Below, piece by piece: positions 22,201-43,341 of a stretch of 45,896 nt of DNA (position 1 is the first letter of the stretch; the number at the start of each line of letters is the position of its first letter). The stretch comes from Cladosporium sp. IMV 00045 (lineage: Eukaryota; Ascomycota; Dothideomycetes; Cladosporiales; Cladosporiaceae): the NCBI GenBank assembly GCA_001931905.2, contig MSJI02000432.1, positions 1 through 45,896 on the forward strand, given 5' to 3'. Below the pieces are notes generated by a model, which saw nothing but the letters and a program-made list of their open reading frames with translations, had not been told where the DNA came from and ran no database searches. Made by a program: the position numbers and the translations under genes.

Positions 22201-22294
22201 GGGATGATGTGCATACTCTTTCAGGCGGGTGGCCTTTGTGGTTGTGGTGCTTCTTCTCCCCCCGCCGGCTGAGGAAACGGTGGACCCCACTCAT
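19261..22294 (-). CDS. Ubiquitin-specific protease (peptidase C19) with C-terminal CaaX box
   Basis: Model: exons 22217..22294 and 19261..21876 on the minus strand, 897 residues. Exon 1 (MSGVHRFLSRRGEKKHH...) has a strong start context (ACCATGA). Exon 2 opens TVVKPDHFGGVFTPTDPNRKK. The 340-nt intron is long for this window, so a small extra exon cannot be excluded. The catalytic Cys box is NRESVTCYLDALLFGMF (Cys127), closer to CYLD-type than to the usual GNTCYxNA. The His box is VHSGHYVCLSRG (His499), followed by WMRFDDL (Asp537). The region after about residue 600 is disordered and Ser-rich, then a Lys/Glu tract, a His-Gly repeat (from about residue 870), and the last four residues CVVM, a perfect CaaX prenylation box. 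Expected to deubiquitinate membrane-associated substrates; the substrate is unknown. Confidence 0.82.
19315..19348 (-). repeat. 6-bp tandem repeat encoding a His-Gly tract
   Basis: Repeats of CATGCC read on minus as GGCATG/GGGCAT units and encode alternating His and Gly near the USP C-terminus. This is in-frame microsatellite sequence, likely to vary in length between strains. Confidence 0.6.
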
Positions 22295-25554: not shown

Positions 25555-27015
25555 TCAGCCTTCTTCCATCGCAACGTCTTCTTGCGGTTGTGAATGGCCG
25601 TTGACTTCCTGCGCGGTCTTTTGAGGGGCATCGCTGAGAAGAGTCTGCCCGTTCGTTTGCTCAACGGCGTCACCTGCCACTGCTGCTTCCTTTGAAACCT
25701 CCGCGTGCTCCGCGCCACCGTCTGTTTGCCCATTGACGGCCGGACCTGCTCTACGTCGTCGGTAGATTTTGATAGTCTTGTCGACACCACACGTGGCAAT
25801 CGCGCCGTCCTGAGCGCAAACGTCCACACCCAACACCACGCCCTCGTGGCCCTGCAAGCGCTGCAGGATCTCCTTCGAATTGACGTCCCACAGCACGGTG
25901 CTCCCATCTTCACTGCCGCAAGCCGCAAAAGCCCATTGCGGCCTCTGTTGCTTTTCCTCCTCTGCTTCCTCCTTGCTTCCTTCCACCCGCGCAGCAGAAG
26001 CGGTGTACGTGCCAAAGCAGACCTGAATGCTGAATTTCTCGTTCTTGTGCCCCTGATACGTCTTCACACACCTGCCCTCCACATAGTTCCACAGCCGCAA
26101 GCTGCTATCCAGCGTCGCGGCCAGCACGTAGCGGCCATTGGGCGAAAACTTGACGCTCGTCACCGGCGCATTGTCTTCGTGAACGAGCGTCTTGAGACAC
26201 TGCCCTGTTCCTGTGTCCCAAATTCTGATCAACCCATCACTGCTACAGCTCGCCGATAGAGTCCCATCCCGCACAAAGTCCACACCCGAAACCGGATCCG
26301 AATGCGCCGGCAGCGACCGCATGACCCGCGCAGTCCTCACATCCCATAGAAAAACCGCTTCATCATACGAACCGGAGACCAGGATATTCCCCTTCGGCGA
26401 GAAGGCCAGGGAGTAGACGTAGTTATGGTGTCCCGCCAATGGCACCGGCAGCGCCTTGCCCGTCTCCACATCCCACATGCGAATGAGCTTGTCGTCCGAC
26501 CCGGAAGCGATCACGCGACTGTCGGGCGACCAGGACAGCGCCGAAATCCCGGCAAGGTGACCTTCGAGCGTGTGCTGCAGGGTGCCCGTCGCCGCAGACC
26601 AGATTTTGATCGTGCAGTCCGCCGAGCAGCTGGCGAGGCGCTTGCCGTCCGGTGAGAATTTCACCGCCGCGACGCCGCGCTTGTGGCCTTTCAGCGTGTA
26701 CTGCAGCGCGTAGTCGAGTTTGCGCGGTCGTTCCGCCAGCAGTTTTCTGCGCTTTGTGTTCGAGTCGGCGGACGGTGTGCCTTCGGCGCTGCTCCTGAGC
26801 TCTTCGGGGACTTCGGGCGTTTGCACTTCATTTTCGTCGTCGTTGTCGTCTTCGTATGCGAATGCGAATTGCTCGTTGGCGTCGTCGAGGGCGGGCGCTT
26901 GGTACGGTGTTGAGGCGGCGGAGTGGTAGGCGGAGGGAGGGTCAAGGGATTCGGAGCGTTTGCGTTTGGGCGAGCGTCGGTTGAAGTGAGGATCGGGGGT
27001 TGAGGCGTAGCTCAT
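25555..27015 (-). CDS. SWD3: WD40 protein SWD3/WDR5, COMPASS (Set1) subunit
   Basis: A single 486-residue frame. Seven WD40 repeats span about 103-419: GHKRGVAAVKFSPDGKRLAS...IKIWS, GHLAGISALSWSPDS...IRMWD, GHHNYVYSLAFSPKGN...VFLWD, AHSDPVSGVDF...IRIWD, DNAPVTSVKFSPNGR...LRLWN, GHKNEKFSIQVCF...TVLWD and GHEGVVLGVDV...IKIYR. Repeat order and spacing match Swd3/WDR5, the propeller that holds Set1 methyltransferase and histone H3 in the COMPASS complex for H3K4 methylation. The N-terminal 100 residues (with PKRKRSES, NLS-like) and the C-terminal 65 are disordered. A charged insertion (EGSKEEAEEEKQQR) lies inside repeat 6. Another WDR5-like paralogue remains possible, but Swd3 fits best. Confidence 0.82.
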   Translation of the reverse strand: MSYASTPDPHFNRRSPKRKRSESLDPPSAYHSAASTPYQAPALDDANEQFAFAYEDDNDDENEVQTPEVPEELRSSAEGTPSADSNTKRRKLLAERPRKLDYALQYTLKGHKRGVAAVKFSPDGKRLASCSADCTIKIWSAATGTLQHTLEGHLAGISALSWSPDSRVIASGSDDKLIRMWDVETGKALPVPLAGHHNYVYSLAFSPKGNILVSGSYDEAVFLWDVRTARVMRSLPAHSDPVSGVDFVRDGTLSASCSSDGLIRIWDTGTGQCLKTLVHEDNAPVTSVKFSPNGRYVLAATLDSSLRLWNYVEGRCVKTYQGHKNEKFSIQVCFGTYTASAARVEGSKEEAEEEKQQRPQWAFAACGSEDGSTVLWDVNSKEILQRLQGHEGVVLGVDVCAQDGAIATCGVDKTIKIYRRRRAGPAVNGQTDGGAEHAEVSKEAAVAGDAVEQTNGQTLLSDAPQKTAQEVNGHSQPQEDVAMEEG

Positions 27016-27801
27016 GTTTGTGGTGGGTGATGAGGTGTTGTGGTTTGGGTTGTGAGGTGGGTTTGATCTTTTGGGAATAATTTATGTGGAAGTTGAAACG
27101 CGGAGAACGCGCAGCTTGGGGAAGGCGCGTTTGTGGAGTGATGTCAATGGGAAGATCGGGGACTTGATTGTGAGATCACATGGAATAATAAGAACAAAGA
27201 GAAAATTGGAGGTCATGCAATGTAAACATCAAGACGCGGCAGCGAGCCTCTATCCACTTCTTTTTGTTTGTAGCATCGAGATCATTGCATCGTTGTAAAC
27301 GTTTCACTTGCAAGATCTCAAACATACATGTAGGTATGAAGCTGTATTGTACTCGTTAGAAAGCGGCTGATAATTGACACAAGCTGCGTTTGTAAAGAGT
27401 CAATGAACCAATGTGTTTCCTCGCGATACTTCGATTCCTATTGACCTCGAGCGCGTCTGTATTTCACAGACCAGCGGCTTTGAGCGTTCAAGTTTCATCC
27501 AACCTTCAGTATCCATCCATTAACATCCATCATCCAATTCCTTCCGTGTAGTTTTGACCTTCAGTTCCGTCCTTCAATTCGACATCCACCCTTTAAAGTC
27601 CGTCCTTCAGAGTCCACCCTTGCCATCATTGCCGCAACCTATCGAAACCCCATCCAAACCCCATCCCTGATCCCATCCTTCAAATCATTGTCGATGCGCG
27701 TTGTTGTGGTACTCGCAGCTTCGACAAGCATTGTCAACCCTCCCATCATTGATCCCGATCCTCCCTTCCTCCCTCCGCCACAACCGTCACGCCACTCAAT
27801 C
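27016..27801. other. SWD3 promoter and 3' flank of the lysine-rich protein gene
   Basis: 786 bp without a recognisable gene. From about 27490 to 27680 there is a loose pyrimidine-rich repetition of CATCC and CCTTCAG words, i.e. low-complexity 3' flank rather than a clean tandem array. Confidence 0.5.
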
Positions 27802-29586
27802 TCAGTTCTTGCCGATGAACTCATCGTCGGTGTTTGCGAAATCGGCGCCGAAGGCTGCCTCGTTGTTTGAGGTTTCGATCGTCCTCTCGTTGTCGCCTTG
27901 GTCGGCAGCGGCAGCAGAGTCGGCAGTGTCCTTCTTCTGAGCGGTCGCGGACTTCGTGGCACGCTTCGGAGCACGCTTAGTGGTAGTTGTAGCTGCGTTC
28001 GTGGTCTTGCGAGCGGCTGCCTTCTTGGGTGGCTTGGCCGGCGCCTTCTCCTCTTCAACAAAGTCCTCGTCCTCGTTAGCAGCCACAGAGGCATTCTGCT
28101 GGCGCTTGCTGGGCTTCTTGGTAGGTTTCGCTGAATTTGCTGTTGGTGTGCTGTTGCGGGTAGATGCAGCGGTACTCTTCTTCGCTCTCTTGGGCGCTGG
28201 AGCTTGCTCTGCCTCCGCAACGTCATCGTCATCAGCCGCTTTACGGGCTCGCTTTCTCGGAGTCTGAGCCGTCTTCTTGACAGCGCTGGTGGGAGCTGCT
28301 GTCGTCGACTTGTCCTGCGCTGCAGTTGCTGGAGCGGCAGTCTTCTTCACCCTCTTGCGGGCATGATCGGAATCCGTATCGTCAAACTCATCCTCGGAAG
28401 CGGCGTCACGAGAGCGCTTCTTTGAAGACTGGGCTTTGGTAGCCTTCTTGGAGTTGGCGGCTGGAGCAGTCTTGGGGTCACTGCTTGCTTGCGCTTTCGC
28501 CTTCTTGACTGCCTCAGACGTGATACAGTTCTCAGTACCGTCACTCTCATTGTCGGTGGTCATCTCAGTGACCGTGACCACGTTTGCGCGCTTCTTCGAC
28601 GGAGGATTGTCGTCTTGCTCCTCTGGTTCGACTTCGTCGCGCTTTCTCTTGTTGGACGCCAGCTTCTTTTTGCCATCTGGCTGTCCAGAGGCACGGGGAG
28701 TAGCAGTAGCAGCTGAAGCAGCAGCTGTCATCACAGAAGGATCCGTAGCCTTACATTCCTCGCTGCTAATCGTTCCTCTGGTAGACCTTTTATAGGCCTT
28801 TTCATGGAACCCAACGCGGAGGCGAACATGCCTGAGCAGTAGCCTAAGCAAAACATCAGGAAATCGACGGGCATCAACATATTCAGAGTCCAGACGAAGG
28901 TGCAACGACACCATCTCGACGAAGCGATCCTGTATCCAAGGGGTGAAGTCATAGAAGTGACGAACGATGTCTTCTTTCTCCATGAATGTCACCGATGGTT
29001 GCTGCGGCGATTCCTCCACAGCATCGGGATGATCGCGAGCGCTCTCGATCGAGGCGCAGAGTCCGAGCAGGGCGCGGGCAGTCTCATGAGGGACAGGGAT
29101 GCGCGGTTCTTCGAGTTCGTCGGGGCAGAGGTTCATGAGGATGTGGAATGCCTCTTCGTACTGCTGGTCGTCCATCAACTCAAGCTCGCACTTCAAGATG
29201 AATCTTTTCCTGGCAGTCATCGGTTGGTAGATGGCCTCGAACATGTCGTCGTCCGAGTCATTGCACACGCTCTCAGGCTCTGGGGTATAGCTTCGATTCG
29301 TATACTTGGTGTGAGCATCGCTGCTGGCTTCTTCGACTGCCTCTTCATCTTCAGACTGTTCAGACTCGACTCCATTCTCGAACATGTCGTGGTTGTCTCC
29401 ATCACTATTATCAGCCTCGTCAGACTGCTCTGCGTCCGCGTCAGGCTCGCTGTCGTCGGCGGCAGATGCCACAGAGACGGCCTTGTCTGCGGTGGTACCA
29501 TCGGCAGCAGAGATAGGCTCTTTGGGTTCGTCCAAAGAGACGGCAGTCTTATGCTGAGGCGTTGCCTTCGTGGCATTCTTGAACAT
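27802..29586 (-). CDS. Lysine-rich, largely disordered nuclear protein of unknown function
   Basis: I do not recognise this 594-residue frame. Residues 1-115 are acidic (many Asp/Glu/Ser, for example DDSEPDADAEQSDEADNSDG). Residues about 115-265 look folded and helical (MTARKRFILKCELELMD, EEAFHILMNLCPDELEEPR, EDIVRHFYDFTPWIQDRFVEMV, FPDVLLRLLLRHVRLRVGF). Residues about 290-565 are a Lys/Ala/Thr-rich tail with many basic clusters (KRKRDE, PSKKRANV, RKRARK, PKRAKK), like histone H1 tails or nucleolar proteins, and the end is acidic again. A nuclear DNA- or RNA-binding role is inferred from composition only. The start at 29586 is the first ATG after an in-frame stop, but the frame stays open upstream without ATG (including TTGGKGLKEFDS), so a 5' exon may be missing. 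Confidence 0.7.
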   Translation of the reverse strand: MFKNATKATPQHKTAVSLDEPKEPISAADGTTADKAVSVASAADDSEPDADAEQSDEADNSDGDNHDMFENGVESEQSEDEEAVEEASSDAHTKYTNRSYTPEPESVCNDSDDDMFEAIYQPMTARKRFILKCELELMDDQQYEEAFHILMNLCPDELEEPRIPVPHETARALLGLCASIESARDHPDAVEESPQQPSVTFMEKEDIVRHFYDFTPWIQDRFVEMVSLHLRLDSEYVDARRFPDVLLRLLLRHVRLRVGFHEKAYKRSTRGTISSEECKATDPSVMTAAASAATATPRASGQPDGKKKLASNKRKRDEVEPEEQDDNPPSKKRANVVTVTEMTTDNESDGTENCITSEAVKKAKAQASSDPKTAPAANSKKATKAQSSKKRSRDAASEDEFDDTDSDHARKRVKKTAAPATAAQDKSTTAAPTSAVKKTAQTPRKRARKAADDDDVAEAEQAPAPKRAKKSTAASTRNSTPTANSAKPTKKPSKRQQNASVAANEDEDFVEEEKAPAKPPKKAAARKTTNAATTTTKRAPKRATKSATAQKKDTADSAAAADQGDNERTIETSNNEAAFGADFANTDDEFIGKN

Positions 29587-31215
29587 GGAGTCAAACTCCT
29601 TGAGGCCCTTGCCGCCGGTTGTTCTGCGGTTTTCGGACGTGATGGATGTGGACTTCGGTAGATGTGGGAGGATTGTTGCGTGGGTTGTTGAAGCGGGTGA
29701 GAGGAAAGACGTTGCGAGAGGTATTGAGGTAGAAGGATACCGCAGCTCGAGTGGCTGTCGAGTTTGGTTGGTGTATGTTTTGCTTTAGAGCGAGTTGATT
29801 GTAAGTGGCAGTAGGGCGCTGGAGGTGTTGTAAGGATGTAAGAGGTTTGGTGATGGCGGCGGTATGTCGAAGTTTGTTTGACTCGAAATACCAGTGGGGT
29901 GTAGGTTTGCTTTTGCAAGTAGGAGAGGAAAGCTTTCAAGGCTTTCAAGAAGAAAGACAAGACTGCTCGGCTGGCAGTGTGCGACACGACTTGCTTTCAC
30001 TTCTTCCTGCGTTCACTTCACCACGGAAAGTTACTGGAATAACTTCTGTGCGATCTCCTCAACTTCACTGCTGCCAAACTGCAACGAGGAAGAGCCTAGC
30101 GAGTTGTCGATAAACGTCGATAAACGTCGATACGAGGATTTTGGTTCGGTCAGAGAAGTCTTGCGGCGCCGGTTAATCAGCTTTGGTAAAGGGGATGCGA
30201 TGCGGGAGGTCGAACTGTAAGCCAGTTCGTGAGTTGTGGGTTTACATGTTGCGAGCCTGGAAGTAGCTTAGTAGGATGCGAACCGCAACGTCCAGAAGTC
30301 GTCATACGTCAGTTCCCAAGGCTCCCATACAACGGAAGTGAAGTTTGCAGGGGAAAGTGAAGGGGCGCATCTATCGCCTCTCGGTTTCACCTCAACACAG
30401 GAGACTTTGCAATCCGGCAAATGCTACTTGGTATGAAAGACCTCTACATCTTTCATGGACCCGTGGTTCTTTGGTCGATGTCCTCAAGAGCACGATTGTA
30501 TCAGTAACTGTTGAGCGACAGGTTTATATTTGCTCGCCGCAGATTGAGCGAATCAGCCATGGCTGGCCAGTCATAGTACGCAATCGCTGTTCACAGAATA
30601 CATGAATGAACGGCCCAAATGTTTTTGGTTCTTCGTTGCAGAACATCACCTATTCTGTGTCTCATTCGGCAACCTGGAAATGTCGTATATATGAACGTTC
30701 GCGAAGTGGGACTGAGAAACGGTAGCAAAGAATATATGTGAAAGTAGTTACAATTTTGATGCAAGAGCAGCAATGATTCTGCACGCAAGATACTTAGCTC
30801 TGTTTGCCTGATTTATTGTTGTCTGGATCGATATGCCCTCCTTCTTTGTCCGTTTGAAAGGACGCATGACAGTCCATAGTATGCATTGATTGACGGATTT
30901 CGATCAACGAAAGAACGTCACCAATAGTGTCACATTGAGCCATGGACATGTCATCTGTCTTAATAATCATAATAGGAAAGTCGCTTCGATGATATGGAAG
31001 CATCGATGCTGGAAGTGAAGTTAGACAAAGTGAAGCCAGGCGACGAAGTGAAGTCAACTCTCGGCCTACAGCACCGGGAGTCCGAGCAATCTCCGGGTCT
31101 CTAGCAAGAAGTCGTCTCGAATACATGTGATATTGCTTTGGTCAGCGAGATATTTACTTTCTCTTACTTTCATTATTGCCATCCATACGTACGGCTTCGC
31201 ACGTAGCCTGCAATC
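29587..31215. other. Divergent intergenic region before COQ9
   Basis: About 1.6 kb. The first 200 bp may hold a missed 5' exon of the lysine-rich protein gene. A 10-bp unit (CGATAAACGT) is repeated in tandem at 30108-30131. The rest shows only short random frames on both strands. Confidence 0.45.
30108..30131 (+). repeat. 10-bp tandem repeat (CGATAAACGT)
   Basis: Two full copies and the start of a third in direct repeat, in the intergenic region between the divergent lysine-rich protein gene and COQ9. Each unit contains GATAA, the core recognised by fungal GATA factors; relevance is uncertain. Confidence 0.55.
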
Positions 31216-31962
31216 ATGTCGCTCCAACGAACTCTTCTCCGCACCCCTGCGACTCTCCGCCCTCTCCTTGTTCAACAACCCACGCGAGCCCTCTATCACT
31301 CCTACGAGCATAACCCTCCACCTGCCTATCCCGAAATCGAATCTAATATCTTGTCCACTGCCTTGACCCATGTGCCTAAACATGGCTTCAGTCAAGAAGC
31401 TCTCACCCTCGGCGCAAAAGACACTGGCTACCTGAACATCAGCACAAACCTCTTCCGCAAAGGTGCATTCGATCTGGTTCTCTACTATCTCGTCACACAG
31501 CGCCTTGCGCTCGGCAACCGTGTTCAGTTTCTGGATGAGAATATGGGTGTTGGGCGTAAAGTCAGATCATTGGTCATGGAGCGCCTGCGCGCAAACGGTG
31601 AAGCGGGTGTTGTACCGCATTGGACTGGGGCGTTAGGACACATGTCTCTGGCGGAGAACATCCCTGCCTCTCTTCGTGAGCTTGCGAAGCTCAGTGATGA
31701 GATCTGGTTCCTGGCTGGCGACAAGGCCGTCGATTCATCCTGGTACACCAAGCGAGCTTCATTGTCAAGCGTGTACGCTACGACAGAGATGTACCAGACG
31801 CAAGATCAGAGCACCGATTTCAAAGACACAGAGGCTTTCCTTGACAGGCGATTGGAGGAGGTGAGGATCATGGGCGGTGCAGTTGGTGGTACTTTGCAAT
31901 GGGCTGGTTTCCAAGCTGGTGCTATGGTCAACCTTCTGAGAAGCAAGGGCGTCAGGATATAA
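31216..31962 (+). CDS. COQ9: Ubiquinone biosynthesis protein COQ9, mitochondrial
   Basis: A single 248-residue frame. COQ9 is a lipid-binding, TetR-like protein that presents coenzyme Q intermediates to Coq7 on the matrix side of the inner membrane. The N-terminus (MSLQRTLLRTPATLRPLLVQQPTRALYHSYEH) is an Arg/Leu/Ser-rich mitochondrial presequence. The COQ9 domain follows: ILSTALTHVPKHGFSQEALTLGAKDTGYLN, LVLYYLVTQRL, then the strongly conserved PHWTGALGHMSLAENIPASL, DEIWFLAGDKAVDSSWYTKRASLSSVYATTE and RRLEEVRIMGGAVGG. Length is normal. No introns. Confidence 0.94.
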   Translation: MSLQRTLLRTPATLRPLLVQQPTRALYHSYEHNPPPAYPEIESNILSTALTHVPKHGFSQEALTLGAKDTGYLNISTNLFRKGAFDLVLYYLVTQRLALGNRVQFLDENMGVGRKVRSLVMERLRANGEAGVVPHWTGALGHMSLAENIPASLRELAKLSDEIWFLAGDKAVDSSWYTKRASLSSVYATTEMYQTQDQSTDFKDTEAFLDRRLEEVRIMGGAVGGTLQWAGFQAGAMVNLLRSKGVRI

Positions 31963-32881
31963 GAGGCTGAAATGGTCTTTGTGTTCTACTGGATCTCTAT
32001 CAAGCTTTCTGGACCACACCCTTGCCTTTCGGCTCAGGATCATGGCATCAAAGCATCAGAATAGTGCCCCTCATTGCCTGAGATATACCAGCCTCAGTTT
32101 GGAAAGAGGGTTCATTGTCTTGCGGTCTCTTCTCAACGGATCTAAGGGTCTTTTCATCTGGCCAGAGTCTAGCCGGCGGCGTCCATCCTCGTTTTCTGCG
32201 CAGAATCTAATCTACCCGAAGGCTACAACATTCGTACCCTAGGCCTTGAGCAAAACACGCCGTGCAAATGGCATAGCAGCCAGATGCCATTGGCTCTCTG
32301 ATTTCAGGCCAACACGCGGTGCGGAATGTGCATGACACATCACAGCACATGATCTGGTGTGATATTTCAAGATAATTCTGTTTTCTGGAAGGCTCGCGGC
32401 GATAGATCCGCCATCGAGTGACGACAACAGACACACTCTTGCTGTGTATGTCTCACATGGCTCATAGCTGTATAATTGTATCAATACTGTACTTTAAAGG
32501 GCACCTTTGACTAACAGGCTCTGCTTGGCCCTCCGACTTCTTCGTGTACTTCGCATCGTCTATATCAGCGTGAAAGAAGCATCGCTTTCTTGGCTCGATG
32601 TTTCCACATCAGGCCCTATTCTCGTACCGGTTTTGGCTTCTTAACTATCAATGTTGCTTCACCGCCGAAACGATCTACATCTTTCTTTCTAATCGACCAG
32701 AGATCTAAGGGATCTGGCCTTGAATTAATCGTGTTGGCTTCCAGAGAGGTGAGTGGATACGAGCATCATGGAAAATCACGTTGAACAATCACATCGGTCA
32801 GCCACTTCTCCAGAGCCTGTCAGAGAACAACTCCGCGGCTTAACAACCAGTATGCATGAAGCACAAAAGCAAAAAAAGAAA
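31963..32881. other. Intergenic region COQ9 - tRNA-Trp
   Basis: 919 bp of mixed composition with no recognisable gene. It becomes more AT-rich toward the tRNA. Confidence 0.5.
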
Positions 32882-32966
32882 TGAACCTGACCCGATTTGA
32901 ACGGATGACCTTGTGGATATCCCGATATCACTGGAATCACACGCGCTACCACTGCGCCACAGGTCC
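32882..32966 (-). tRNA. tRNA-Trp (CCA) with a 13-nt intron
   Basis: Reading the minus strand, all arms fold. Acceptor GGACCTG pairs with CAGGTTC (one G-U), with discriminator A. D arm is GCGC-AGTGGTA-GCGC. Anticodon arm is TGTGA, loop TTCCAG..T with anticodon CCA, then CCACA (one A-C mismatch next to the loop). The variable loop is AGGTC. T arm is ATCCG-TTCAAAT-CGGGT. An extra 13 nt (32918-32930, TGATATCGGGATA) sits one base 3' of the anticodon, the canonical tRNA intron site. The mature length is 72 nt without CCA. The sequence agrees with eukaryotic nuclear tRNA-Trp (TGGCGCAGTGGTAGCGCG). The A-C mismatch and weak T stem leave a small chance that it is a decaying copy. Confidence 0.85.
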
Positions 32967-33568
32967 AATTTGATTGGATTCGTGATATCATCAATAGCTT
33001 TGACAAATATAAATGCCGCAAATATTGCCAAAATTTTAAGATCAGAAAAATGGAGAACCTGAACCAATGCTACAAAATTAGAACAGAGGTACATCTATGG
33101 ACGGTCTCGGTCAATAGTAGATAAGATAAACAATACTGTCAATCATACAGTGCATTTTCTTCCAATTTCTGGGAAAATATTCACATTCCCAATGTATGTG
33201 GAAATATAGTAATGTGCGAACATGGCGAAGTTGTGAGAGTGGGCCAATCCGGACTCTCGATGCTCTTTTGTTCAGAGTCGCGCCCGAGCAATGCGAACGC
33301 TCATAGTAACGGGTATCAGCGTTGCTTTTCTGACGAGCATTTGTTCAACGATGAAAATAACCAAACAGATTTCTCCGAAGACCCTGATTACGTTACAGGA
33401 AGTGTTGATGGGCCTTTCGACGAACACCAACCCTAACCCTAGACCGCGTGGCTTACAAGCTTGCTCACTCAGAAGTGTTTTGTCTGAGAGTGGTAGAAAG
33501 TCAAAAGAAATTCAAATCTGGACATTTTTTATTGGATACATAATGTCCTCATAGAACGATTTTCACAC
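32967..33568. other. AT-rich intergenic region tRNA-Trp / TRM6
   Basis: 602 bp, clearly more AT-rich than the flanking genes. It holds the tRNA 5' flank and the TRM6 3' flank. A telomere-like AACCCTAACCCTAG lies at 33429-33442. No gene is seen. Confidence 0.5.
33429..33442 (+). repeat. Interstitial telomere-like sequence (CCCTAA-type)
   Basis: The motif AACCCTAACCCTAG carries two CCCTAA-type units. It lies 127 bp downstream of the TRM6 stop. It is too short to be a chromosome end; a telobox-type protein site or a chance or repair-derived insertion are the alternatives. Confidence 0.5.
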
Positions 33569-35313
33569 TTAGGCTGGCGTACCAGCCGAACTCTCAGTAC
33601 CCTCCTCAACCTTCCTCTTCTTGCTATGGTTACCCCTAGCCTCAACACCACCCTCAAGTGGGATGACCCTCCTAGCTGTGAAAACAAAACCCTCACTGCC
33701 ACCCTTGCTAGTCATGAGAGGATGCGTGCGACCGGGCAGGACCTGCCACTCACGAATGCGACTCGTCTGCAGCGTCGGCGCCAGAAGAAGACGCGGGTCC
33801 ATAGGGAAATCATCCTTGTCCGGCACTTCTCCCTTCGACAGGATGTTCAGGTATGCCGTGCGACGGTCCTTGGAATACCAGTCTGAAAGCTTCACCAGCG
33901 GCTCAACCGTGGGTGAGTAGACGACGATATGCCCACCGCCTCGGATGAGAGGCACGACATGCGGGAAGATGGTAGAAGGGTCCATGTGCGAAGCAACGAC
34001 AAGACCGTCGAAGCCGCCAGCGCGTGTCTCATCGACAATGTTCTTGCAGCGCTCCCAGCGTCTGCGCTTCTTGTAGTAAGTGCCTCGCTTGCCGCTCTTC
34101 CAGGTCTGAATGGTCTCATGATCGGCATGCTCGGGCTCGCTGTATGTTGGGTCCTCCTCCGGGTGGAGAAGTTGAAGCCAGGAGAGGGTCTTGAGATGTT
34201 CGTGTAGTGGGTGATCCGGATCCGGGTTATTGCCATCGTAGTCGAAGTATTTGAGCAGGCTGATGTTGGCTTGAACTGCCGCGTGAAGGATGGTGATGGT
34301 ATTTGACGAAGCAGGGATAGGGAAATCGTGATGGGTGATCGGAGTGTGAGGCTTGCCTTCAGGATGTCCATTCTCCATGGGCTGGTCGGCGGATTCTGAA
34401 GGGTTGCCTTCCGCAGGCGTCTCAGTGTTCACGACCTTTGAAGGCGCATTGTCATCTTTGCGGAGGAGGTTCATCCTCTCTGCCACAGCTGCCGTAACCA
34501 GACCACCTGTGTCGTCGATCACTAGCCATCTCCCGCCCAGGCCTGTTACACCCAAATCGTTGTCGTCACCAACCGGCTTGCTGAAGTGCGCATTGCTCCA
34601 TGCCATTGCCAATCCCAGTGTTTCCTCTCTGATTTCCATGGTCCGACTTGGCTCCTTCTCCATGATGTAGTCGATCAAGAATCCCAGCTCCATCGGCAAG
34701 ACGGTGAACTGTTTCAGGTACTTCTTGCTCTTTCGCAAAGTATATTTCGCCTTTGAGAACGCAGTCTTCTCAGCCAAGCCAGCATGGTTGGCGAGGATCT
34801 TCTCAATGACTTCCTTTCCGCCCGAGCTTTTCTTCAATTCCTCGATCTCATCGTGTGAGAGTGCTTGCCGAGATGCGTCGTCAATGGTGAGTCGGTTGTT
34901 CTTCATAACCACAGTGCCGTCGTCTGCCACAATATCGAATCCTTCCGCACCGCCATTGGCAGTCTCAGGCTCTCCCAGGTTCTCAGCCGGTGCCTCTTCC
35001 TCGGCCACAACATCTGCGTTCAGCTCACTGGGCGGTACAGTGCGCAGACGACTGTACAGTTCGCCTTCTTGCTTCTCGAGCACTTCATAGGTGTAGTAGA
35101 GCGGTCGGCCAAGGAGGAGGTTTGATGGAAATGAGCCGTACTTGCCGATTTCGATGATCCTGCGCCATTCTCAGCTTGGCTTCGCAGGAATCATGCGTTG
35201 TGGCCGGACGAGACCTACGTGTTTGGTTTGACCTCAACTGCTTTCAGTTGGTCGGAAACAAGGCGCAGAAACACCCAGCTATTGGGTCGGATGCGGCCAT
35301 TGCTTGGTGTCAT
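33569..35313 (-). CDS. TRM6: tRNA (adenine-58-N1)-methyltransferase non-catalytic subunit TRM6/GCD10
   Basis: Exons 35219..35313 and 33569..35159 on minus give 561 residues. The 59-nt intron (donor GTAGGT, acceptor GCGCAG) splits a Thr codon and joins MTPSNGRIRPNSWVFLRL...VEVKPN to TIIEIGKYGSFPSNLLLGRP, the conserved N-terminus of Trm6. With catalytic Trm61 it forms the nuclear tetramer that makes m1A58 in tRNAs, including initiator tRNA-Met. Typical blocks are TIDDASRQALSHDEIEELKKSS, KYTLRKSKKYLKQFTVLP and, late, RIREWQVLPGRTHPLMTSKGGSEGFVFT. The middle has an acidic, disordered insertion. It diverges from the homoserine kinase-AIRS gene over 339 bp and lies 0.6 kb from a tRNA gene, the latter likely chance. 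Confidence 0.92.
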
Positions 35314-35652
35314 AATGTGTGGACTATACTTGCCTTGCGAATGGGACCCGAGCACCCTTATTGCGATCTCTCAGCAAATGATGGTCGTTCAAGGAAAGTC
35401 GCGATGCGAGCTTGAGTGAATTATCACAGACTTTCACATGCTTGCCCGGAGATGGCCCGTGCCGGAAGTCAGATAAGATCTCTTATCAGGGAATATTTTC
35501 TGAGATATGTGGGGTTTGTGACTGGCCGATGAGGGACCATGCGAGGGCATTGAACACCCCCAAGGCAACTTCGAGATACAGTAATAGTGTAGACCCGGAG
35601 CAAACGACTATTCTGTCACCCTCTCCGGCCACCGCCTCATCGGCTCGACAAT
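35314..35652. promoter_or_regulatory. Divergent TRM6 / homoserine kinase-AIRS promoter
   Basis: 339 bp between divergent starts. I found no perfect Gcn4/CpcA site (TGASTCA), which would be expected for general amino-acid control of threonine synthesis. If transcription starts far upstream, ATGs at about 35452 (26-codon frame) and 35529 (overlapping the main start) would act as upstream frames. Transcript start is unknown. Confidence 0.4.
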
Positions 35653-37773
35653 ATGATTTCCATCAAGGTTCCCTGTTCGTCGGCCAACATTGGTCCTGGC
35701 TTCGACTGCATCGGTCTTGCTCTGTCAGTATGGCTTGAGTTGAAGATTACTCTGAACGATGCCTCTTCCAAGGATTCTCCCCTCAACTGCCGTATCACCT
35801 ACGAGGGCCAAGGGAAGGAAGATGTTTCCCTCGACCCCGAGAGGAACCTGATCACACAGACGGCCTTGTACGTCTTGAGATGCCACGAGCAGAGGGCATT
35901 CCCTGCAAACACACATGTCCACATTGTCAACCCAATCCCTCTTGGACGCGGTCTTGGATCTTCTGGAGCCGCGGTCGTCGCTGGTGTTGCTCTTGGTAGT
36001 GCTGTTGGCAACCTCAACTTGAGCAAAGACCGTATGCTTGACTTTTGCTTAATGATTGAGAGACACCCCGACAATGTGGCGGCCGCTCTTTATGGTGGCT
36101 TCGTTGGCAGCTACCTGAAGGAGCTCGACCCCGAGGATATGAAGCGCAAGGAAATTCCTCTGGCTGAAGTCCTTCCCGCACCCCAGGGTGGCGAAGACAC
36201 AGGGCTCAAGCCGCCTGTCCCTCCTCACAACATTGGCCGTCACATTCGTTTCCCTTGGGCCAAGGAAATCAAGTGCATTGCGATCATTCCCCAGTTTGAG
36301 GTCAGCACTGCAAGCGCGAGAGGCGTTCTTCCCACTACCTACGAAAAGCAGGATGTCATCTACAACTTGCAGCGTGTCGCCCTTTTGACGACTGCACTTG
36401 GCCAGTCGCCTCCTCAAGCAGACATGATCTACGATGGTATGCAGGACAGAGTCCACCAGCCTTACCGCAAGACTCTCATCCCCGGCCTCACTGAGATCCT
36501 CCAATCGGTCACTCCTGCGTCACACCCCGGCCTTCTGGGTATCTGCCTTTCAGGAGCCGGCCCTACAATCCTGGCCCTCGCCACTGAGAACTTCGATGGC
36601 ATTGCCAACCACCTGATCAACCAATTCAAGAAGGAAAACATCATTTGCGAATGGAAGCTTCTCGAGCCCGCCAACGATGGCCTCGTTATTGCAGACGAGT
36701 CCAATGCCAAGCCCGCGGGAATGACCTACGCTGACGCTGGCGTTTCTATTGACTCTGGCAACGAGCTCGTTCAGAGTATCAAGGCCGCTGTCAAGTCCAC
36801 CCGCCGCCCTGGTGCAGATGCAGACATTGGCGGTTTCGGTGGTGCTTTTGACTTCACTGCTGCCGGCTACGTGGAATCCCCGACCCTCATCCAGGCCATT
36901 GACGGCGTCGGCACCAAGCTTAAGATTGCTTTCGAGATGGATGACTTCAGCACCGTCGGTATCGATCTCGTCGCCATGAACGTAAATGACCTGGTCGTCC
37001 AGGGCGCTGAACCCCTGACCTTCATGGACTACTATGCCTGCTCCCAGCTTTCCGTCCCGGACGCAGTACGCTTTGTTGAGGGCGTTGCGCGCGGATGTAT
37101 CGATGCTGGCTGCGCTCTTGTCGGTGGCGAGACTGCTGAGATGCCTGGTATGTACCAAGGCAAGGAATTCGATGCCGCTGGTGCTGCCACCGGTGCTCTG
37201 AAGAAGGGCCGCAAGGTCCTGCCCTACACCGACACTATGAAGGCGGGCAATGTTCTGCTCGGTCTCGGCAGTAACGGGGCGCACTCCAACGGCTACTCTC
37301 TCGTGCGCAAGATCGTCGAGAGAGCTGGCCTCTCGTACAGCGACAACGCACCCTGGGACTCTTCCAAGACTGTTGGTGCATCTCTGCTCACCCCCACCAA
37401 GATCTACGTCAAGCCTCTCCTCGCTGCTGTCGAGAAGGACTTGCTCCTCGGAATGTCTCACATCACCGGTGGTGGTCTCGAGGACAACATCCCACGCATG
37501 TTGCCCAAGCACCTCGGTGCGGAGGTCGACTGCAGCTCATGGCCTGTTCCTGAGGTGCTCAAGTGGTTGAAGAAGGCTGGTGGCGTCAACGAGCGCGAGT
37601 TCGCTAGAACCTGGAACACCGGTCTCGGCATGGTGATTGTCGTTGAGGAGAGCAAGGTGCAAGAAGCCACCGAGGTGCTCGAGAAGGCCGGCGAGAAGGT
37701 TTACAAGGTCGGTAAACTGATTAACAAGGGTGATGAGGAGGTCGTGCTCAAGAACACGGCTGGATGGAACTAG
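35653..37773 (+). CDS. Fusion protein: homoserine kinase - phosphoribosylformylglycinamidine cyclo-ligase (AIR synthetase)
   Basis: One uninterrupted 706-residue frame holds two complete enzymes. Residues 1-345 are a GHMP homoserine kinase (Thr1 type, ATP + homoserine to O-phosphohomoserine): N-terminal IKVPCSSANIGPGFD (4-18), ATP loop NPIPLGRGLGSSGAAV (93-108), motif 3 GICLSGAGPTILALA (296-310) and the terminal CEWKLLEPANDG. A linker of about 10 residues (about 346-356) leads to AIR synthetase (PurM/Ade5,7 C-terminal type, 357-706, FGAM + ATP to AIR). Its motifs are TRRPGADADIGGFGG, DGVGTKLKIA (417-426), GIDLVAMNVNDLVVQGAEP (436-454), GGETAEMPGMY (491-501), NGAHSNGYSLVRKI and HITGGGLEDNIPR (603-615). 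In most fungi AIRS is fused behind GARS instead; no GARS part is present here. Composition and codon use do not change across the joint, arguing against an assembly chimera. Confidence 0.93.
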   Translation: MISIKVPCSSANIGPGFDCIGLALSVWLELKITLNDASSKDSPLNCRITYEGQGKEDVSLDPERNLITQTALYVLRCHEQRAFPANTHVHIVNPIPLGRGLGSSGAAVVAGVALGSAVGNLNLSKDRMLDFCLMIERHPDNVAAALYGGFVGSYLKELDPEDMKRKEIPLAEVLPAPQGGEDTGLKPPVPPHNIGRHIRFPWAKEIKCIAIIPQFEVSTASARGVLPTTYEKQDVIYNLQRVALLTTALGQSPPQADMIYDGMQDRVHQPYRKTLIPGLTEILQSVTPASHPGLLGICLSGAGPTILALATENFDGIANHLINQFKKENIICEWKLLEPANDGLVIADESNAKPAGMTYADAGVSIDSGNELVQSIKAAVKSTRRPGADADIGGFGGAFDFTAAGYVESPTLIQAIDGVGTKLKIAFEMDDFSTVGIDLVAMNVNDLVVQGAEPLTFMDYYACSQLSVPDAVRFVEGVARGCIDAGCALVGGETAEMPGMYQGKEFDAAGAATGALKKGRKVLPYTDTMKAGNVLLGLGSNGAHSNGYSLVRKIVERAGLSYSDNAPWDSSKTVGASLLTPTKIYVKPLLAAVEKDLLLGMSHITGGGLEDNIPRMLPKHLGAEVDCSSWPVPEVLKWLKKAGGVNEREFARTWNTGLGMVIVVEESKVQEATEVLEKAGEKVYKVGKLINKGDEEVVLKNTAGWN

Positions 37774-38180: not shown

Positions 38181-38903
38181 ATGAAAGCCTACTGGTTCGA
38201 CAACCTCCCCGTAAGAAGCCCCCAAAAAAACCCCAAACCCCCCGTCTTCCCCTCCTCTCAAACCAACCCAACCCACCTCAATTAACACCACCACCTGCAG
38301 GGCGACCAGCGCCTCCCCCACGACTCCGGCCGCCCCGTCGACCCCGCCTACCTGACCGCCCTCGGCATCTCCCACTACTACTTCCCGGACGACCTGGAAT
38401 CCGTGGACAAGATCGCGGCGGAGCGCAGCTACAAGAATCGCGACGAGATCGAAATCTCGCCCACGCTGCTGCCGGGGTACGAGGAGAAGGTCAAGAACTT
38501 CTTCCACGAGCACTTGCACGAGGACGAGGAGATTCGCTACATCCTTGGTGGCGGTGGATATTTCGACGTCCGTGGTAGGGAGGACGATTGGGTGAGGATC
38601 AGGCTGGAGAAGGGCGATTTGATGATTATGCCCGCGGGGATTTATCACAGGTTTACGACGGATGATCAGAATGTGAGTTTGCCCCCTTGGTAGTACTGGT
38701 TTGGGGGCCTGAGGAGACTGGTGTTTCTTCAACTGGATATTCTTGAGGCATTGGCTGACTGAGATGGTTTACAGTACACCAAAGCTCTGCGTCTGTTCAA
38801 GGAGGACCCCAAGTGGACGCCGCTGCAGCGCGGCGAGGAGACTGACCAGAATCCTTACCGTAAGGAGTACCTGAGCAGCACTGGTACTCCTCAAGCTGTC
38901 TGA
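38181..38903 (+). CDS. ADI1: Acireductone dioxygenase (methionine salvage)
   Basis: Exons 38181..38210, 38301..38672 and 38775..38903 give 176 residues. Exon 1 is only 30 nt ([10 protein letters not shown]). Introns of 90 and 102 nt start GTAAGA and GTGAGT and end CTGCAG and TTACAG; all junctions fall between codons. This cupin enzyme oxidises acireductone to 2-oxo-4-methylthiobutyrate (Fe form), the step before methionine is regenerated from methylthioadenosine. Metal ligands are visible in [18 protein letters not shown] (two His and a Glu) and [10 protein letters not shown] (third His). The C-terminal block [18 protein letters not shown] is typical. It follows the homoserine kinase-AIRS gene on the same strand, so two steps of linked methionine, threonine and purine metabolism lie side by side. 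Confidence 0.94.
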
Positions 38904-39128: not shown

Positions 39129-40144
39129 TTACTGGCCACCTCGGATGCGGCCTTGGAATTGAGACAGCCACGCCCGTTCTTGAGGCGACAATCGCATGTA
39201 ACTGGGAATGTGAACGCCAGACGCCGAGATGGTAATCTGATCTCGTTCAGAGACCTGCTCGTGCAGATCATTTGTCTCATCTTGGGAGACTCCGGCTGCT
39301 GTCGAAGCGTTGCTGAGCTGGTGCTGCAACGAGTTGTCGCTGTGGGAATTTGTTAGTAGATGCTCACAAACTCTAGCGATGAAAGTTCCTGCATCACTTA
39401 CCTGCTATCCGAAGCCTTACGGCCAGGCTTCTTCTCAACATCCGCATCGTCCGCTGCCTCAGTTTTGCCGCCAGGCAGTTTAGAACCTACTTCCGTGGGA
39501 GACCACCAGAATACCGGGTATTGGCGCAGAATGTTATTCCACAGCAATGCTACGACCTGCATGACGACCGATCCGAGGAGGACGATAGGGATATACCACC
39601 ATCCCATGGCGATGATGTTCGACTGAGTCGCCGCAAGCACGGCAGTCGCACCTCCGGGCGGGTGAACGGTGTTCGTCACACACATGATCAGCGACGCGCA
39701 GGCGCAAGCCATCGCGCCCGCGATCCATTGGATGCTATCGAAATCCGGATTGAGCTGGAAGAGTTTGGCGATGCAGACGCCGACGATGGCAGAGAAGGTC
39801 TGTCCACCGACCGAGTTGCGCGGCTGCGCGACAGGGACGCGGATGCAGCTATAGTTCAAGATCGCACTGGCGCCCAGTGATGCGACGATGACCGGAGGGT
39901 TCTTGTCGGCCACGCCCGGGGCGAAGGAGAAGATGGCACCGATGATGAGGATGCCGACGAAGGCACCGACGAAAGCCGAAAACCATTGCAGGACGGCGGG
40001 CGGTTCCCTGAAAGTATCTTTTCGATATCCCAGAAATCGCGAGACGGGTGTGGGAAGGCGATCCAGGCGGTTGCGCGGGACGAACGGATTGACATATCGG
40101 TCTATGTCGAAGTCCAGCAGTTCCGAGGCGACCTTTGACGGCAT
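39129..40144 (-). CDS. HPP family integral membrane protein
   Basis: Exons 39402..40144 and 39129..39339 on minus give 317 residues. The 62-nt intron (GTAAGT, branch CTACTAAC, acceptor CCACAG) splits a Ser codon. The start at 40144 (MPSKVASELLDFDIDRYVNPFVP) is preferred because family members begin with this LDFDIDRYxNPF-PxxRLxRLPxPxSRFLGYR block. An upstream in-frame ATG at 40276 would add 44 residues. Four membrane segments follow, with VGGQTFSAIVGVCIAKLF and the family signature TNTVHPPGGATAVLAA (the His-Pro-Pro motif). The C-terminal 70 residues are soluble and end with VHIPSYMRLSPQERAWLSQF. Bacterial and plant HPP proteins have been linked to nitrite transport; the fungal role is not established. 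Confidence 0.86.
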
Positions 40145-41400
40145 GGTTGCGGGCTGTAGGTCTTTGAGAGGCGAGTGGCGATTGTTTTCCTTGGTGGCAG
40201 ACAAAACCGAAATAACAGAAAACGCGGTCAAAGAAACAAACGCTTGCTTATAGAGGAGTGATGCGGACGAGCGCAACTCCGAGGCAAATGAGAGAGGGAG
40301 AGAGAGAGACAGAGTGCGCGTTCAAACCTTGAGAGCAGTCTCGATGCCGCAAGAGCCGCCAATATTCCAGAAGTCACGCTCCGCTATAGCGACACGCCCG
40401 TTTTTTGACCATTTGGAGAAATGACGCCTTGGAGCAGTGTGCACGATTGCGCTCACGCATGACAGATCCCCCAAGATCTGCCGTCGATTTCGCGCAACTC
40501 CTCGGCATGCTCGAGCCGAGCAGTTATAGCGAAGGGCGAAACTTACCGTTTTGAGGAAGACTTCGACGAGCGAGCTCTGGGTCCAGGAGTTGTAATGGTC
40601 GTTCAGGAGTAGTATAACAGCTCTCTTTGTTTTGTCATCTTATCGGCACCAAAATCTCTCGCAGGGTTTGCCTCGACAGCGGTGCTGCTGATCGCACTCG
40701 TCGCCTCCGGAGATGGATCATCGTTGAAATGACCGCCAAATGCCATCAGCGAGGCGTGACCGCGTTTCTTCCTGACCTCCGCTTTGCGAGCGAAGCTTAT
40801 TTCCGAAATTTGTACGTAATGGCTGAGTCAAGCGTAGGGTCGGGGTCGAGTGTCTCTTATAGGCATATTTTAGGCCTGCGCAATGGCTCGAGGTCGCTGG
40901 AGAGTTATGTGAGTGTAGTCAAAGTGTCTAGAGGAAGAAGTGAGGTCGAAATAAGAGCAGGTGAGGTCCATATCTACCTCAACTCGTTGTTGAGATAAGG
41001 AAGACTGTTCTGCGATTCGCCGGAGATGCCGGAGGTGCTGTTATCAGGAAGACTTGGGCTCCAAGACTGAGGCTCTGCGGTTAGACCCGACACGGAGAAT
41101 GATATTCCTCCACAGGTCCCTGCAGCCTTTTATTTGGAAGTATTGTTATTGTTACTTCCATACGTGGAACATATGGAGCGTCGCTGGATGTTAAACTTTC
41201 GTTGTTAAGCACGCAAATCCCCCCAACACCATCGTTCACGGAAACTCGGCAGACACATGCATATAATTTGCGTCGACATAGTTGGGGAGGTCCTTCTCAC
41301 GGGGTTGTAGATGGCAGGCTTGTGAAAATGGATGATTGATCGATTGTTTGAATGCCCAACCAAGCGACGATCTCACTCCAATCGGCCCATCAAACTAACA
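40145..41400. other. HPP promoter region and VPS45 3' flank
   Basis: 1256 bp. An AG-rich stretch at about 40290-40312 lies in the HPP leader. A 123-codon plus-strand frame at 40627-40998 has no recognisable motif. Otherwise I see nothing in it. Confidence 0.5.
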
Positions 41401-43341
41401 CTATCTCCCAACTTCCCTCCTCAACCTTCCAGCAGCTGTATTCTCCCTCGGTTCCGGCCAGGCCTCAGCAGCCTCCTCTACCTGTCCCAAGAAATCCGCC
41501 GAATTGAGCACACCCGTTCCACCCAGAACGACCCTAACACCGGGGCTACTGGCATTCACCTGCGCCACCATCTTGGCCTCTTCATACGTCGTGCCTCCCA
41601 CCATGAAAACAATGATATCCTGTGGCTTATCGCGCGTCTGGCCGCCGCCTTCCACGAATGGATAAGTGGACGCGTTGAGGCGGCCTTTGATCAGATCCTG
41701 TAGCGTCGCTTCGAGAAGAGGCGAATGCTGCGTGTAGACGTTCTCGACGCCGCGAAGACCGCGGTTGAAACGAGCCCGTGCGGAATCGAAGAGGCCGGTG
41801 GGCTGTGAGAAGAGGTCTGGAATGCCACCTGAGGCTCCTGCAGCGTTCTGAAGCGAAGAAGCGTAGGCGAGAAGGCGCGGGATGAGGTTCACGCGGTATT
41901 TGGGTATGCCTGCAGCGACGGATAAGAGGTCGCAGAGAGCGGGCGTGGCATTCGAGGAATGCGTGTGGTAGCGCAGGGCGTAGATCGCCACTAGGCGCAG
42001 CTTGTTGTCTGGTGGTACTGAAGGGTTTTGGATCAATGTTTGAAGTGTCTTGACGTCTTGCGAATGATTATCGTTGCAAGCCAGACTCTGTTCGAGCTCA
42101 GAGACGTCAAGCAAGTTGTCTGTGCCGACGCGGCGAGATAGTTCGCCAACCAGGGTAACGTGCTTGGTAACGTTTCCCGACAAGCGACGGAATTCTGGGA
42201 ACTCTTCAACGAAACGTTTCATGTCTTCGATGCTCTCCAGCTTTTGGCCAGATGCTTGTTTGGAGGCAAACTGCTCCACGTAGTCCTTTGCATTTTGACC
42301 AAGGTCGCCGAAATTGAGATACATGTTCTTCGAGAAGAAAGGGTCTTGGTCCTGGCTGATGACAATATCCTGAAATGACGTTAGTAGGGAACATGAATAC
42401 AGGAAAGAGAAGACAAACCTTGAATTCAGGCCTGATATCAGGGACATCACTCAGATTCACTCTGCCATTGTCGATACCGAGAAGCTCATGCACCATGGCT
42501 TGATACGTCCATTGCGTCAATAGAGGAGTGATAGGATCCTCTCTCCGGTCCAGAATAAGCAAGATTGGAGGTGTGTCTGTCTTGCGGAAGTCGAAAAGCT
42601 GCTCCTCCTGCGTCATGCTGTAACGCACTTCTGTCGCCAGTTTCTTGCATAGCAGGCTGTTTTTCTCATACCGAATGAGCGGCTTCTTTTTGAGCGAAAG
42701 CAAGAGCGCAATCACGCCTTCTGTGGTGCGCGAGAGGCTGTCCTGGTTCCAAAGCTCTGGCGACGATGAGAAGAGTCGAGCGGGAAGCCGTATTGAGCAT
42801 AGATCGGGATTGATGACCAGAAAATCGGCGAAATATTCCATGACGCCTTTGACGACTTCATGATCGTCCGCTTCCGCTAGCCGTTCAAGAGCGCTTTTCT
42901 TGACGATGTTGCTGAAGTCTGTGTCAGTCAGAAAGCCCGCCTGTAACAAGATGCTTCATTCGGCATGTTTGCAAACATACAGATGTGGTATTCTCCGTAT
43001 TTTGGCTCCCTGAGCTCATCAATGAGGAATTGTATGCTGTCGGAGGACGGTCGGAGGAAAGCCAAGCATCTCAGGTGCCGCATCTTTTCCCTCTCTTGAT
43101 TGTCAAGGCGGTCGGTGAGGTACACGTTGTGGTTGAGTAGGGCAGACTGGGTGGTTGCCGACGAGACAATGGGGACCTGCGCTGGGTTAGATGTGTATCG
43201 CAAGGACTCGAACATCAGGCTACATACAGTCTCGTTGTCAAGCAAGAGGACCTTCATTTTCGCAGCTGCTTGAGATTGGGCGGCATCCCCAGCCGACACC
43301 ATCTTGGTGATGTAGCCAGAGACCGTTTGGAAGATGTCCAT
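41401..43341 (-). CDS. VPS45: Vacuolar protein sorting protein VPS45 (Sec1/Munc18 family)
   Basis: Exons 42981..43341, 42419..42918 and 41401..42369 on minus give 609 residues. Introns of 62 nt (GTATGT...CACAG) and 49 nt (GTTTGT, branch CTACTAAC, TTTCAG) rebuild GEYHI-YFSNIVKKSALERLAEADDHEVV and IRPEFK-DIVISQDQDPFFSKNMYLNFGDLG. Vps45 is the SM protein that binds the syntaxin Tlg2 and promotes fusion at the trans-Golgi and endosome. Diagnostic parts are MDIFQTVSGYITKMVS, MKVLLLDNETVCSLMF, ILDRREDPITPLLTQWTYQAMVHELLGI and IIVFMVGGTTYEEAKMVAQVN. The start at 43341 is chosen over an ATG 18 nt upstream because Vps45 proteins start at MDxxQ. It diverges from PET127 across 450 bp. Confidence 0.94.

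What the first reader, a model, noticed from the sequence alone, without database searches (positions are those of the whole stretch)
35653..37773. Homoserine kinase fused to AIR synthetase: a threonine-purine bifunctional enzyme
Seen: one uninterrupted 2,118-nt frame encodes a complete GHMP homoserine kinase and, after a linker of about 10 residues, a complete AIR synthetase with every main motif. Established: in most fungi AIRS is the C-terminal half of GARS-AIRS (Ade5,7), while Thr1 stands alone. I know of no description of this pairing. Inference: the pathways meet at glycine, because threonine aldolase splits threonine to glycine and GARS uses glycine to start the purine ring. A fused Thr1-AIRS could co-express or co-localise the two, or AIRS may have moved out of an ancestral Ade5,7. 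Both halves use ATP.
Basis: partly seen in the sequence, partly recalled or inferred. Interest (0 to 1): 0.9.

Follow-up and report, generated by a model that had tools for sequence, protein, structure and literature searches.

The report
Threonine-purine fusion enzyme of Dothideomycetes
One fungal gene encodes a complete threonine-pathway enzyme joined to a complete purine-pathway enzyme; the same joined gene occurs widely in one large class of moulds, and our searches of open papers found no description of it.

Summary
The fusion is real. ORF 35653-37773 (+) encodes 706 aa: a whole homoserine kinase (TIGR00191, residues 3-346), a short linker and a whole AIR synthetase (TIGR00878, 357-691), both far above cut-off. 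It is not an assembly accident: a diverged second copy differs at 107 coding bases but 2 amino acids (dN/dS 0.005), and 120 of 120 listed relatives carry both halves. Named carriers checked fall in eight orders of Dothideomycetes. Named stand-alone Thr1 relatives come from other groups, apart from two truncated Aureobasidium records. In this genome AIRS and homoserine kinase models match only the fusion; GARS is a separate 431-aa gene. In the best tree the fused AIRS is sister to Cryptococcus AIRS, beside rather than inside Alphaproteobacteria; a bacterial origin is not rejected (p 0.075). Likeliest reading: AIRS left a fungal Ade5,7 and joined Thr1, giving two independent active sites on one chain. 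The glycine link is untested. Against a simple single origin: the Thr1-half tree rejects one fused clade when Aulographum and unnamed rows are included. No paper found describes it.

The parts
35653..36690 (+). Homoserine kinase (Thr1) half, residues 1-346, GHMP kinase fold
36691..36720 (+). Linker, residues 347-356
   Evidence: Low conservation (0.32) and variable length 9-22 aa; pLDDT under 50 at 351-354
36721..37770 (+). AIR synthetase (PurM/AIRS) half, residues 357-706
37771..37773 (+). Stop codon of the fused frame
35420..35652 (+). Upstream region / possible 5' leader, nearly unchanged between the two diverged copies (6 substitutions and 3 gapped bases, counted by eye)
   Evidence: pairwise alignment printed; no unusual RNA fold in 35413-35652 (z -1.0)
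35472..35487 (.). Perfect inverted pair of GATA-type sites, GATAAG-ATCT-CTTATC, upstream of the start codon, kept in both copies
   Evidence: expected 0.02 matches per window at up to 2 mismatches

Best explanation
The gene encodes a bifunctional enzyme. Its N-terminal half phosphorylates homoserine in threonine synthesis, and its C-terminal half closes the imidazole ring (FGAM to AIR) in purine synthesis. The two active sites sit in separate domains on a flexible linker with no shared intermediate, so the gain, if any, is most likely joint expression of two essential enzymes rather than channelling. It probably arose at or before the base of the Dothideomycetes, when the AIRS half left a fungal Ade5,7 (GARS-AIRS) and was joined to the intact C-terminus of Thr1, leaving GARS as a lone gene. 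Once the other AIRS copy was gone the fusion was locked in. Shown: the frame, both complete domains, conserved motifs, purifying selection on both halves, wide presence, a lone GARS, and no other AIRS or homoserine kinase match in this assembly. Inferred: both activities, single origin, the route from Ade5,7, and the expression advantage.
For: Both halves exceed curated family cut-offs. Motifs PIPLGRGLGSS, QPYR, SGAGPT, GGETAEMPG and HSNG are the same in 168 of 168 rows at every place; HITGGG has one row with another residue at I604; in DGVGTK only the V varies (I in 102 of 168). Diverged second copy: dS 0.243, dN 0.0012; dN/dS 0.006 in Thr1 and 0.005 in AIRS. PF00586 matches only the 3 fusion copies in the genome, and TIGR00191 likewise. 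GARS on C288 is a gene of 431 aa (one intron, splice sites predicted by me) with a stop right after the GARS domain; a second GARS piece lies at the end of contig C709 with no AIRS match there. 120 of 120 listed relatives of the whole protein have both halves. A search with the Thr1 half, limited by its length to 193-612 aa, lists stand-alone Thr1 from other groups; among named rows the only Dothideomycetes I recognise are two truncated Aureobasidium records. Of 117 stand-alone Thr1s, 104 end 2-6 residues after the point that matches residue 346, so the fusion keeps the whole Thr1. AIRS tree: 21 fusions one clade (100/100), with Cryptococcus neoformans AIRS (7lvp) as sister (98/81). Magnaporthe has MoAde5,7, the homologue of both GARS and AIRS (PMC9502316, passages).
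Against: No transcript, protein or enzyme data. The AIRS trees hold only one fungal AIRS outside the fusions (7lvp) and none from Pezizomycotina Ade5,7. Database bacteria reach 56-58% identity, above the 52% of Cryptococcus, and the tree that places the fusions with Rhizobiales/Rhodobacterales is 19.9 log units worse but not rejected (AU p 0.075); in the quick 94-row tree the branch joining fusions and Cryptococcus has only 86. In the Thr1-half tree the 20 fused rows are not one clade among 40 stand-alone rows, and a single clade is rejected (AU p 8.9e-5). In four smaller row sets chosen after that tree was seen it is not rejected (p 0.40; p 0.25, 0.53 and 0.30). Five AIRS positions are fixed differently from other AIRS; their effect is unknown.
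Confidence: 0.8

Rival explanations
1. The AIRS half did not come from fungal Ade5,7 but from an alphaproteobacterial purM gene captured by an early Dothideomycete and joined to Thr1, after which the AIRS part of Ade5,7 was lost.
For: The 80 best named bacterial loci are, by record title and recall, nearly all Alphaproteobacteria, at up to 57% identity, above Cryptococcus AIRS (52%), Neisseria (50%) and E. coli (48%). The tree that would fit is not rejected at 5% (AU p 0.075).
Against: In the best tree the fusions' sister is the Cryptococcus AIRS (98/81), and both sit beside, not inside, the Alphaproteobacteria.
Confidence: 0.13
2. The pairing arose, or had its Thr1 half exchanged, more than once: for example in Aulographum, whose Thr1 half groups with stand-alone Thr1s.
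For: Aulographum P0354 Thr1 groups with Sarea, Xylona and seven unnamed stand-alone Thr1s (100/99), and a single fused clade is rejected with all 60 rows.
Against: With named rows plus Aulographum but no unnamed rows (41 rows) the single clade is not rejected (p 0.25), nor with the unnamed rows but without Aulographum (55 rows, p 0.30). Thr1 is short and conserved, so deep branches are poorly resolved. The AIRS half of Aulographum lies inside the fusion clade.
Confidence: 0.12
3. Artefact: a misassembly or annotation error joins two neighbouring genes.
For: None found.
Against: The same joint occurs in a diverged second copy and in 169 database proteins from many assemblies.
Confidence: 0.01
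4. The fusion couples the two pathways: threonine aldolase makes glycine from threonine and GARS uses glycine.
For: Pathway logic only (recalled biochemistry, not tested here).
Against: The two half reactions share no intermediate (recalled), and the glycine-using enzyme, GARS, is the part that is not in the fusion.
Confidence: 0.05

Closest known systems
Homoserine kinase Thr1/ThrB (TIGR00191)
   Same: Whole domain, all motifs; no position is fixed differently (90% or more on both sides) between 168 fused rows and 117 stand-alone ones
   Different: Carries a second enzyme at its C-terminus
AIR synthetase PurM/AIRS (TIGR00878; E. coli 1cli, Cryptococcus 7lvp)
   Different: Partner is Thr1; five clade-specific substitutions, e.g. 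W654 in 152 of 168 fusions where 145 of 147 others have F
Ade5,7 (GARS-AIRS) of fungi
   Same: AIRS as the C-terminal half of a two-enzyme chain
   Different: N-terminal partner is Thr1, not GARS; GARS is a separate gene here
GART (GARS, AIRS and GAR transformylase in one chain) of animals
   Same: AIRS within a multi-enzyme chain (rows P0241, P0243 and following)
   Different: All parts belong to one pathway; no enzyme of amino-acid synthesis

Membership tests
Homoserine kinase (thrB/THR1) | Full-length match above the TIGR00191 cut-off | tested here: met
   342.8 bits, cut-off 168.25, model 2-301 of 304
Homoserine kinase (thrB/THR1) | Conserved GHMP motifs (motif roles recalled) | tested here: met
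   PIPLGRGLGSS and SGAGPT 168/168 at each place; the N-terminal PCSSANIGPGFD is missing from 13-18 of 168 rows, which lack that stretch
Homoserine kinase (thrB/THR1) | Phosphorylates homoserine | not testable with these tools
   needs enzyme assay or complementation
AIR synthetase (purM/AIRS) | Full-length match above the TIGR00878 cut-off | tested here: met
   399.4 bits, cut-off 236.35, model 1-331 of 332
AIR synthetase (purM/AIRS) | Conserved motifs DG-GTK, GGETAEMPG, HSNG, H-TGGG (roles recalled) | tested here: met
   168/168 at the fixed places
AIR synthetase (purM/AIRS) | Converts FGAM to AIR | not testable with these tools
   only AIRS match in the genome, which fits but does not prove it
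Ade5,7 (GARS-AIRS) | GARS and AIRS in one chain | tested here: not met
   no GARS in the ORF; GARS ends with its own stop on C288
GART (GARS-AIRS-GART) | GARS, AIRS and GAR transformylase in one chain | tested here: not met
   neither GARS nor a formyl transferase domain is among the Pfam matches of the ORF

The most novel reading that the evidence does not exclude
Threonine and purine synthesis are coupled through this chain in a whole fungal class, and the pairing is selected strongly enough that the Thr1 half was replaced within it, or the fusion was made again, in at least one lineage (Aulographum).
Probability: 0.1. Interest if true: 0.75.

Novelty: new variant of a known kind. Interest (0 to 1): 0.56.

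Why it matters
Multi-enzyme fusions usually join steps of one pathway. Here two pathways are joined, and one of the best-known fungal fusions (Ade5,7) appears to have been undone and its AIRS half re-joined elsewhere, in a class that holds many plant pathogens, rock fungi and black yeasts. It may serve as a molecular marker for the class, it explains inconsistent gene names in databases, and it predicts that loss of this one gene makes the fungus need both threonine and adenine, which is directly testable. It also gives a case for asking why unrelated enzymes become joined and stay joined.

Tried and rejected
Artefact reading: rejected by the diverged second copy and the many relatives. Recent bacterial origin of the AIRS half: suggested by identity to Rhizobiales, not favoured by the careful tree, not excluded. 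Gcn4/Bas1-type sites (TGACTC, TGASTCA; names recalled) in 35084-35652: none found; only a looser TGAGTGA at 35413. Structured RNA in the leader: no signal; Rfam gave only a tRNA at 32882-32966. A retained start Met at residue 357 as a fossil of a lone AIRS gene: M in 140, L in 26, I in 2 of 168 rows, so uninformative. A scan of prokaryote contigs with the AIRS half alone found no relative by its patterns. One search (window 20000-34000 against the genome) listed C877 but neither C930 nor this contig itself, so it says nothing about C930 there.

Rows used and dropped: the quick AIRS tree had 94 rows: 26 chosen database fusions plus this one, 15 multi-enzyme (GART-type) rows, the Cryptococcus row, 30 of the 80 named bacterial loci, and 21 further bacterial rows (19 of the 20 loci, E. 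coli, Neisseria). The careful one kept 55 of them (20 database fusions plus this one), cut by hand for run time. The Thr1 tree used 19 database fusions plus this one and 40 of 117 stand-alone proteins. The 117 were those of the 120 rows that have 300-420 aa and no AIRS match; one of them, P0123, is probably a truncated fusion record. Fusions outside 650-900 aa (2 of 169) were left out. A FastTree run on 285 Thr1 rows did not join the fusions in one clade either: the closest branch missed 47 of them. The row sets were chosen after the tree was seen.

Labelling error: in the scripts and my notes PDB 7lvp was called Candida albicans from memory; its entry title says Cryptococcus neoformans. All statements here use the latter; that it is the AIRS part of an Ade5,7 is recalled.

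Papers: searches-59 seen as listings only (24 was on gene fusions in general, 10 of 21 papers listed); others returned nothing. PMC9502316 seen as passages only; no other listed paper was opened.

Full report

Is it genuine? The 49.9-Mb, 954-contig assembly holds three copies. Contig C930 is identical to this contig over 5,118 bases around the gene and 7,897 bases downstream; one search is uninformative for the stretch 20000-34000. C877 carries a diverged copy in the same order (92.9% around the gene, 93% downstream, 83-90% in matched pieces upstream) with 107 coding differences, 101 at third positions, and 2 amino-acid changes. By Nei-Gojobori, dS is 0.243 and dN 0.0012; dN/dS is 0.006 in the Thr1 half and 0.005 in the AIRS half. 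The two copies point to a hybrid or duplicated genome (inference). An accidental join would not be kept in two diverged copies with both halves under strong constraint.

What else the genome has. PF00586 (AIRS) is found only in the three fusion copies, and so is TIGR00191 (homoserine kinase); the other six GHMP-kinase matches are not homoserine kinases by that model. GARS is a separate gene on C288: ATG, one intron (splice sites predicted by me), 431 aa, stop directly after the GARS domain. A second GARS piece covers model positions 332-424 at the very end of contig C709, most simply the other copy cut by the contig end; no AIRS match lies there. Four further purD matches are weak and below the cut-off. 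The scans are six-frame and the assembly may be incomplete, so absence is strong but not absolute.

How widespread. All 120 listed relatives of the whole protein carry both halves. Of 359 proteins fetched in three searches, 169 carry both: 120 of the first 120, 2 of the next 120 and 47 of the last 119. Named ones include Zymoseptoria, Pseudocercospora, Aureobasidium, Cryoendolithus, Baudoinia, Hortaea, Delitschia, Didymella, Corynespora, Aplosporella, Lasiodiplodia, Phyllosticta, Lophium, Glonium and Aulographum. Eight of these taxa were looked up and all are Dothideomycetes, from both subclasses and from Botryosphaeriales; the rest I place there by recall. A search with the Thr1 half alone, which cannot return full-length fusions because of the tool's length range, lists stand-alone Thr1 from Morchella, Leptodontidium, Lasallia, Exophiala, Penicillium, Neurospora, Coccidioides, Lipomyces and others. 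Among its named rows the only Dothideomycetes I recognise are two truncated Aureobasidium records (P0122, which still has an AIRS domain, and P0123); P0121, unnamed, is also a shortened fusion (of the stand-alone genera only Cirrosporium was looked up). The lists show the 120 best only, so a Dothideomycete with stand-alone Thr1 could be missed, and unnamed rows could be Dothideomycetes. The third search was meant to list Ade5,7 proteins too, but its other 72 rows were animal GART records, unnamed rows of that kind and P0242, so no Pezizomycotina Ade5,7 was seen.

Conservation. In 168 aligned rows the listed Thr1 and AIRS motifs are invariant or nearly so, except that 13-18 rows lack the N-terminal stretch; the linker is variable (9-22 aa). 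Of 117 stand-alone Thr1s, 104 end 2-6 residues past the point that matches residue 346, so the fusion joins at the natural end of Thr1. No Thr1 position is fixed differently (90% or more on both sides) between 168 fused and 117 stand-alone rows. Five AIRS positions are (residues 365, 464, 478, 508, 654), compared with 147 other AIRS rows, 129 of them from prokaryote loci. Whether these came with the fusion or mark Pezizomycotina AIRS in general cannot be told here.

Where the AIRS half came from. In a careful 55-row tree the 21 fusions are one clade (100/100). Its sister is Cryptococcus neoformans AIRS (7lvp), at 98/81, then a protein of unknown source (P0242); these stand beside Alphaproteobacteria, not inside them. 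In the quick 94-row tree the same three form a group with support 86. Inside the fusion clade, the Dothideomycetidae rows and the Pleosporomycetidae/Botryosphaeriales rows form two clades, as expected for an old inherited gene. The alternative with the fusions joined to Rhizobiales and Rhodobacterales is 19.9 log units worse, AU p 0.075: disfavoured, not rejected. Taken with Magnaporthe's MoAde5,7 (PMC9502316, passages), transfer of the AIRS half out of Ade5,7 is the simplest account.

A result against a simple single origin. In the Thr1-half tree (60 rows) the fused rows are not one clade, and holding them together is rejected (AU p 8.9e-5). Aulographum's Thr1 half groups with stand-alone Sarea, Xylona and seven unnamed rows (100/99). 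The rejection needs both Aulographum and the unnamed rows: one clade is not rejected with 40 named rows without Aulographum, Oleoguttula, Cirrosporium and Polychaeton (p 0.40), with Aulographum added back (41 rows, p 0.25), with Oleoguttula added instead (41 rows, p 0.53), or with the unnamed rows but neither of the two (55 rows, p 0.30). These sets were chosen after the tree was seen. I leave this open: replacement of the Thr1 half, a second fusion, or poor resolution.

Mechanism and purpose. The two reactions (homoserine to O-phosphohomoserine; FGAM to AIR) share no substrate except ATP, so channelling is not expected (established biochemistry, recalled). The likely benefit, if any, is fixed joint production of two essential enzymes. 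Neutral lock-in is equally possible: once Ade5,7 lost its AIRS half the fusion could not be lost. Upstream, a perfect inverted pair of GATA-type sites (35472-35487) is kept in both copies, and the 233 bases before the start (35420-35652) show 6 substitutions and 3 gapped bases between copies, counted by eye in the alignment, which suggests control by a GATA factor (inference; the motif's meaning is recalled). No Gcn4/Bas1-type site was found.

Surroundings. Upstream and divergent is a Gcd10-family (Trm6) gene (33569-35083, -); further upstream COQ9 (31216-31962, +); downstream an acireductone dioxygenase (ARD family) exon (38301-38690, +), an HPP-family membrane protein (39398-40276, -) and a Sec1-family protein (41401-42450, -). 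None of these five is a purine or threonine gene.

Known or new. Protein databases already hold the architecture under mixed names, so it is not unseen. Nine targeted literature searches in open-access PMC and one on gene fusions in general, seen as listings, showed no description of the pairing; subscription journals and preprints are not held. I rate it a new variant of a known kind (a bifunctional biosynthetic fusion with an apparently unreported pair of enzymes), of moderate interest.

Noticed in passing
35472-35487: Perfect inverted repeat of GATA-type sites upstream of the fusion gene, identical in the diverged second copy; looks like a GATA-factor control site.
   Followed up: partly
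G000 contigs C429, C930, C877: C930 repeats parts of this contig exactly while C877 is a roughly 93% copy in the same order: the genome looks like a hybrid or duplicated one with redundant contigs.
   Followed up: partly
P0354 (Aulographum hederae): Its Thr1 half groups with stand-alone Thr1s (Sarea, Xylona, unnamed rows) while its AIRS half lies inside the fusion clade.
   Followed up: partly
P0242 (unnamed, 1464 aa): One chain holds two GARS domains, a GAR transformylase and a C-terminal AIRS whose N-terminus resembles that of the fusions.
   Followed up: partly
listing, e.g. P0131, P0137, P0142, P0158: Many stand-alone homoserine kinases are named 'Trihydroxynaphthalene reductase' in public records, probably because both genes are called THR1 (inference, recalled).
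   Followed up: no
P0325 (Lasiodiplodia hormozganensis): A fusion protein is named 'Bifunctional purine biosynthetic protein ADE1', a name for GARS-AIRS (recalled) that does not fit this architecture.
   Followed up: no
P0147, P0148: Two unnamed stand-alone Thr1 proteins with 12- and 17-residue tails (sequences) that look like the fusion linker; they group with Botryosphaeriales fusions (85/82) and may be split or intron-cut fusion genes.
   Followed up: no
P0243, P0244, P0250: Fish and mosquito GART records carry two AIRS domains in one chain.
   Followed up: no
32882-32966 (-): A tRNA gene by Rfam (48.9 bits).
   Followed up: no
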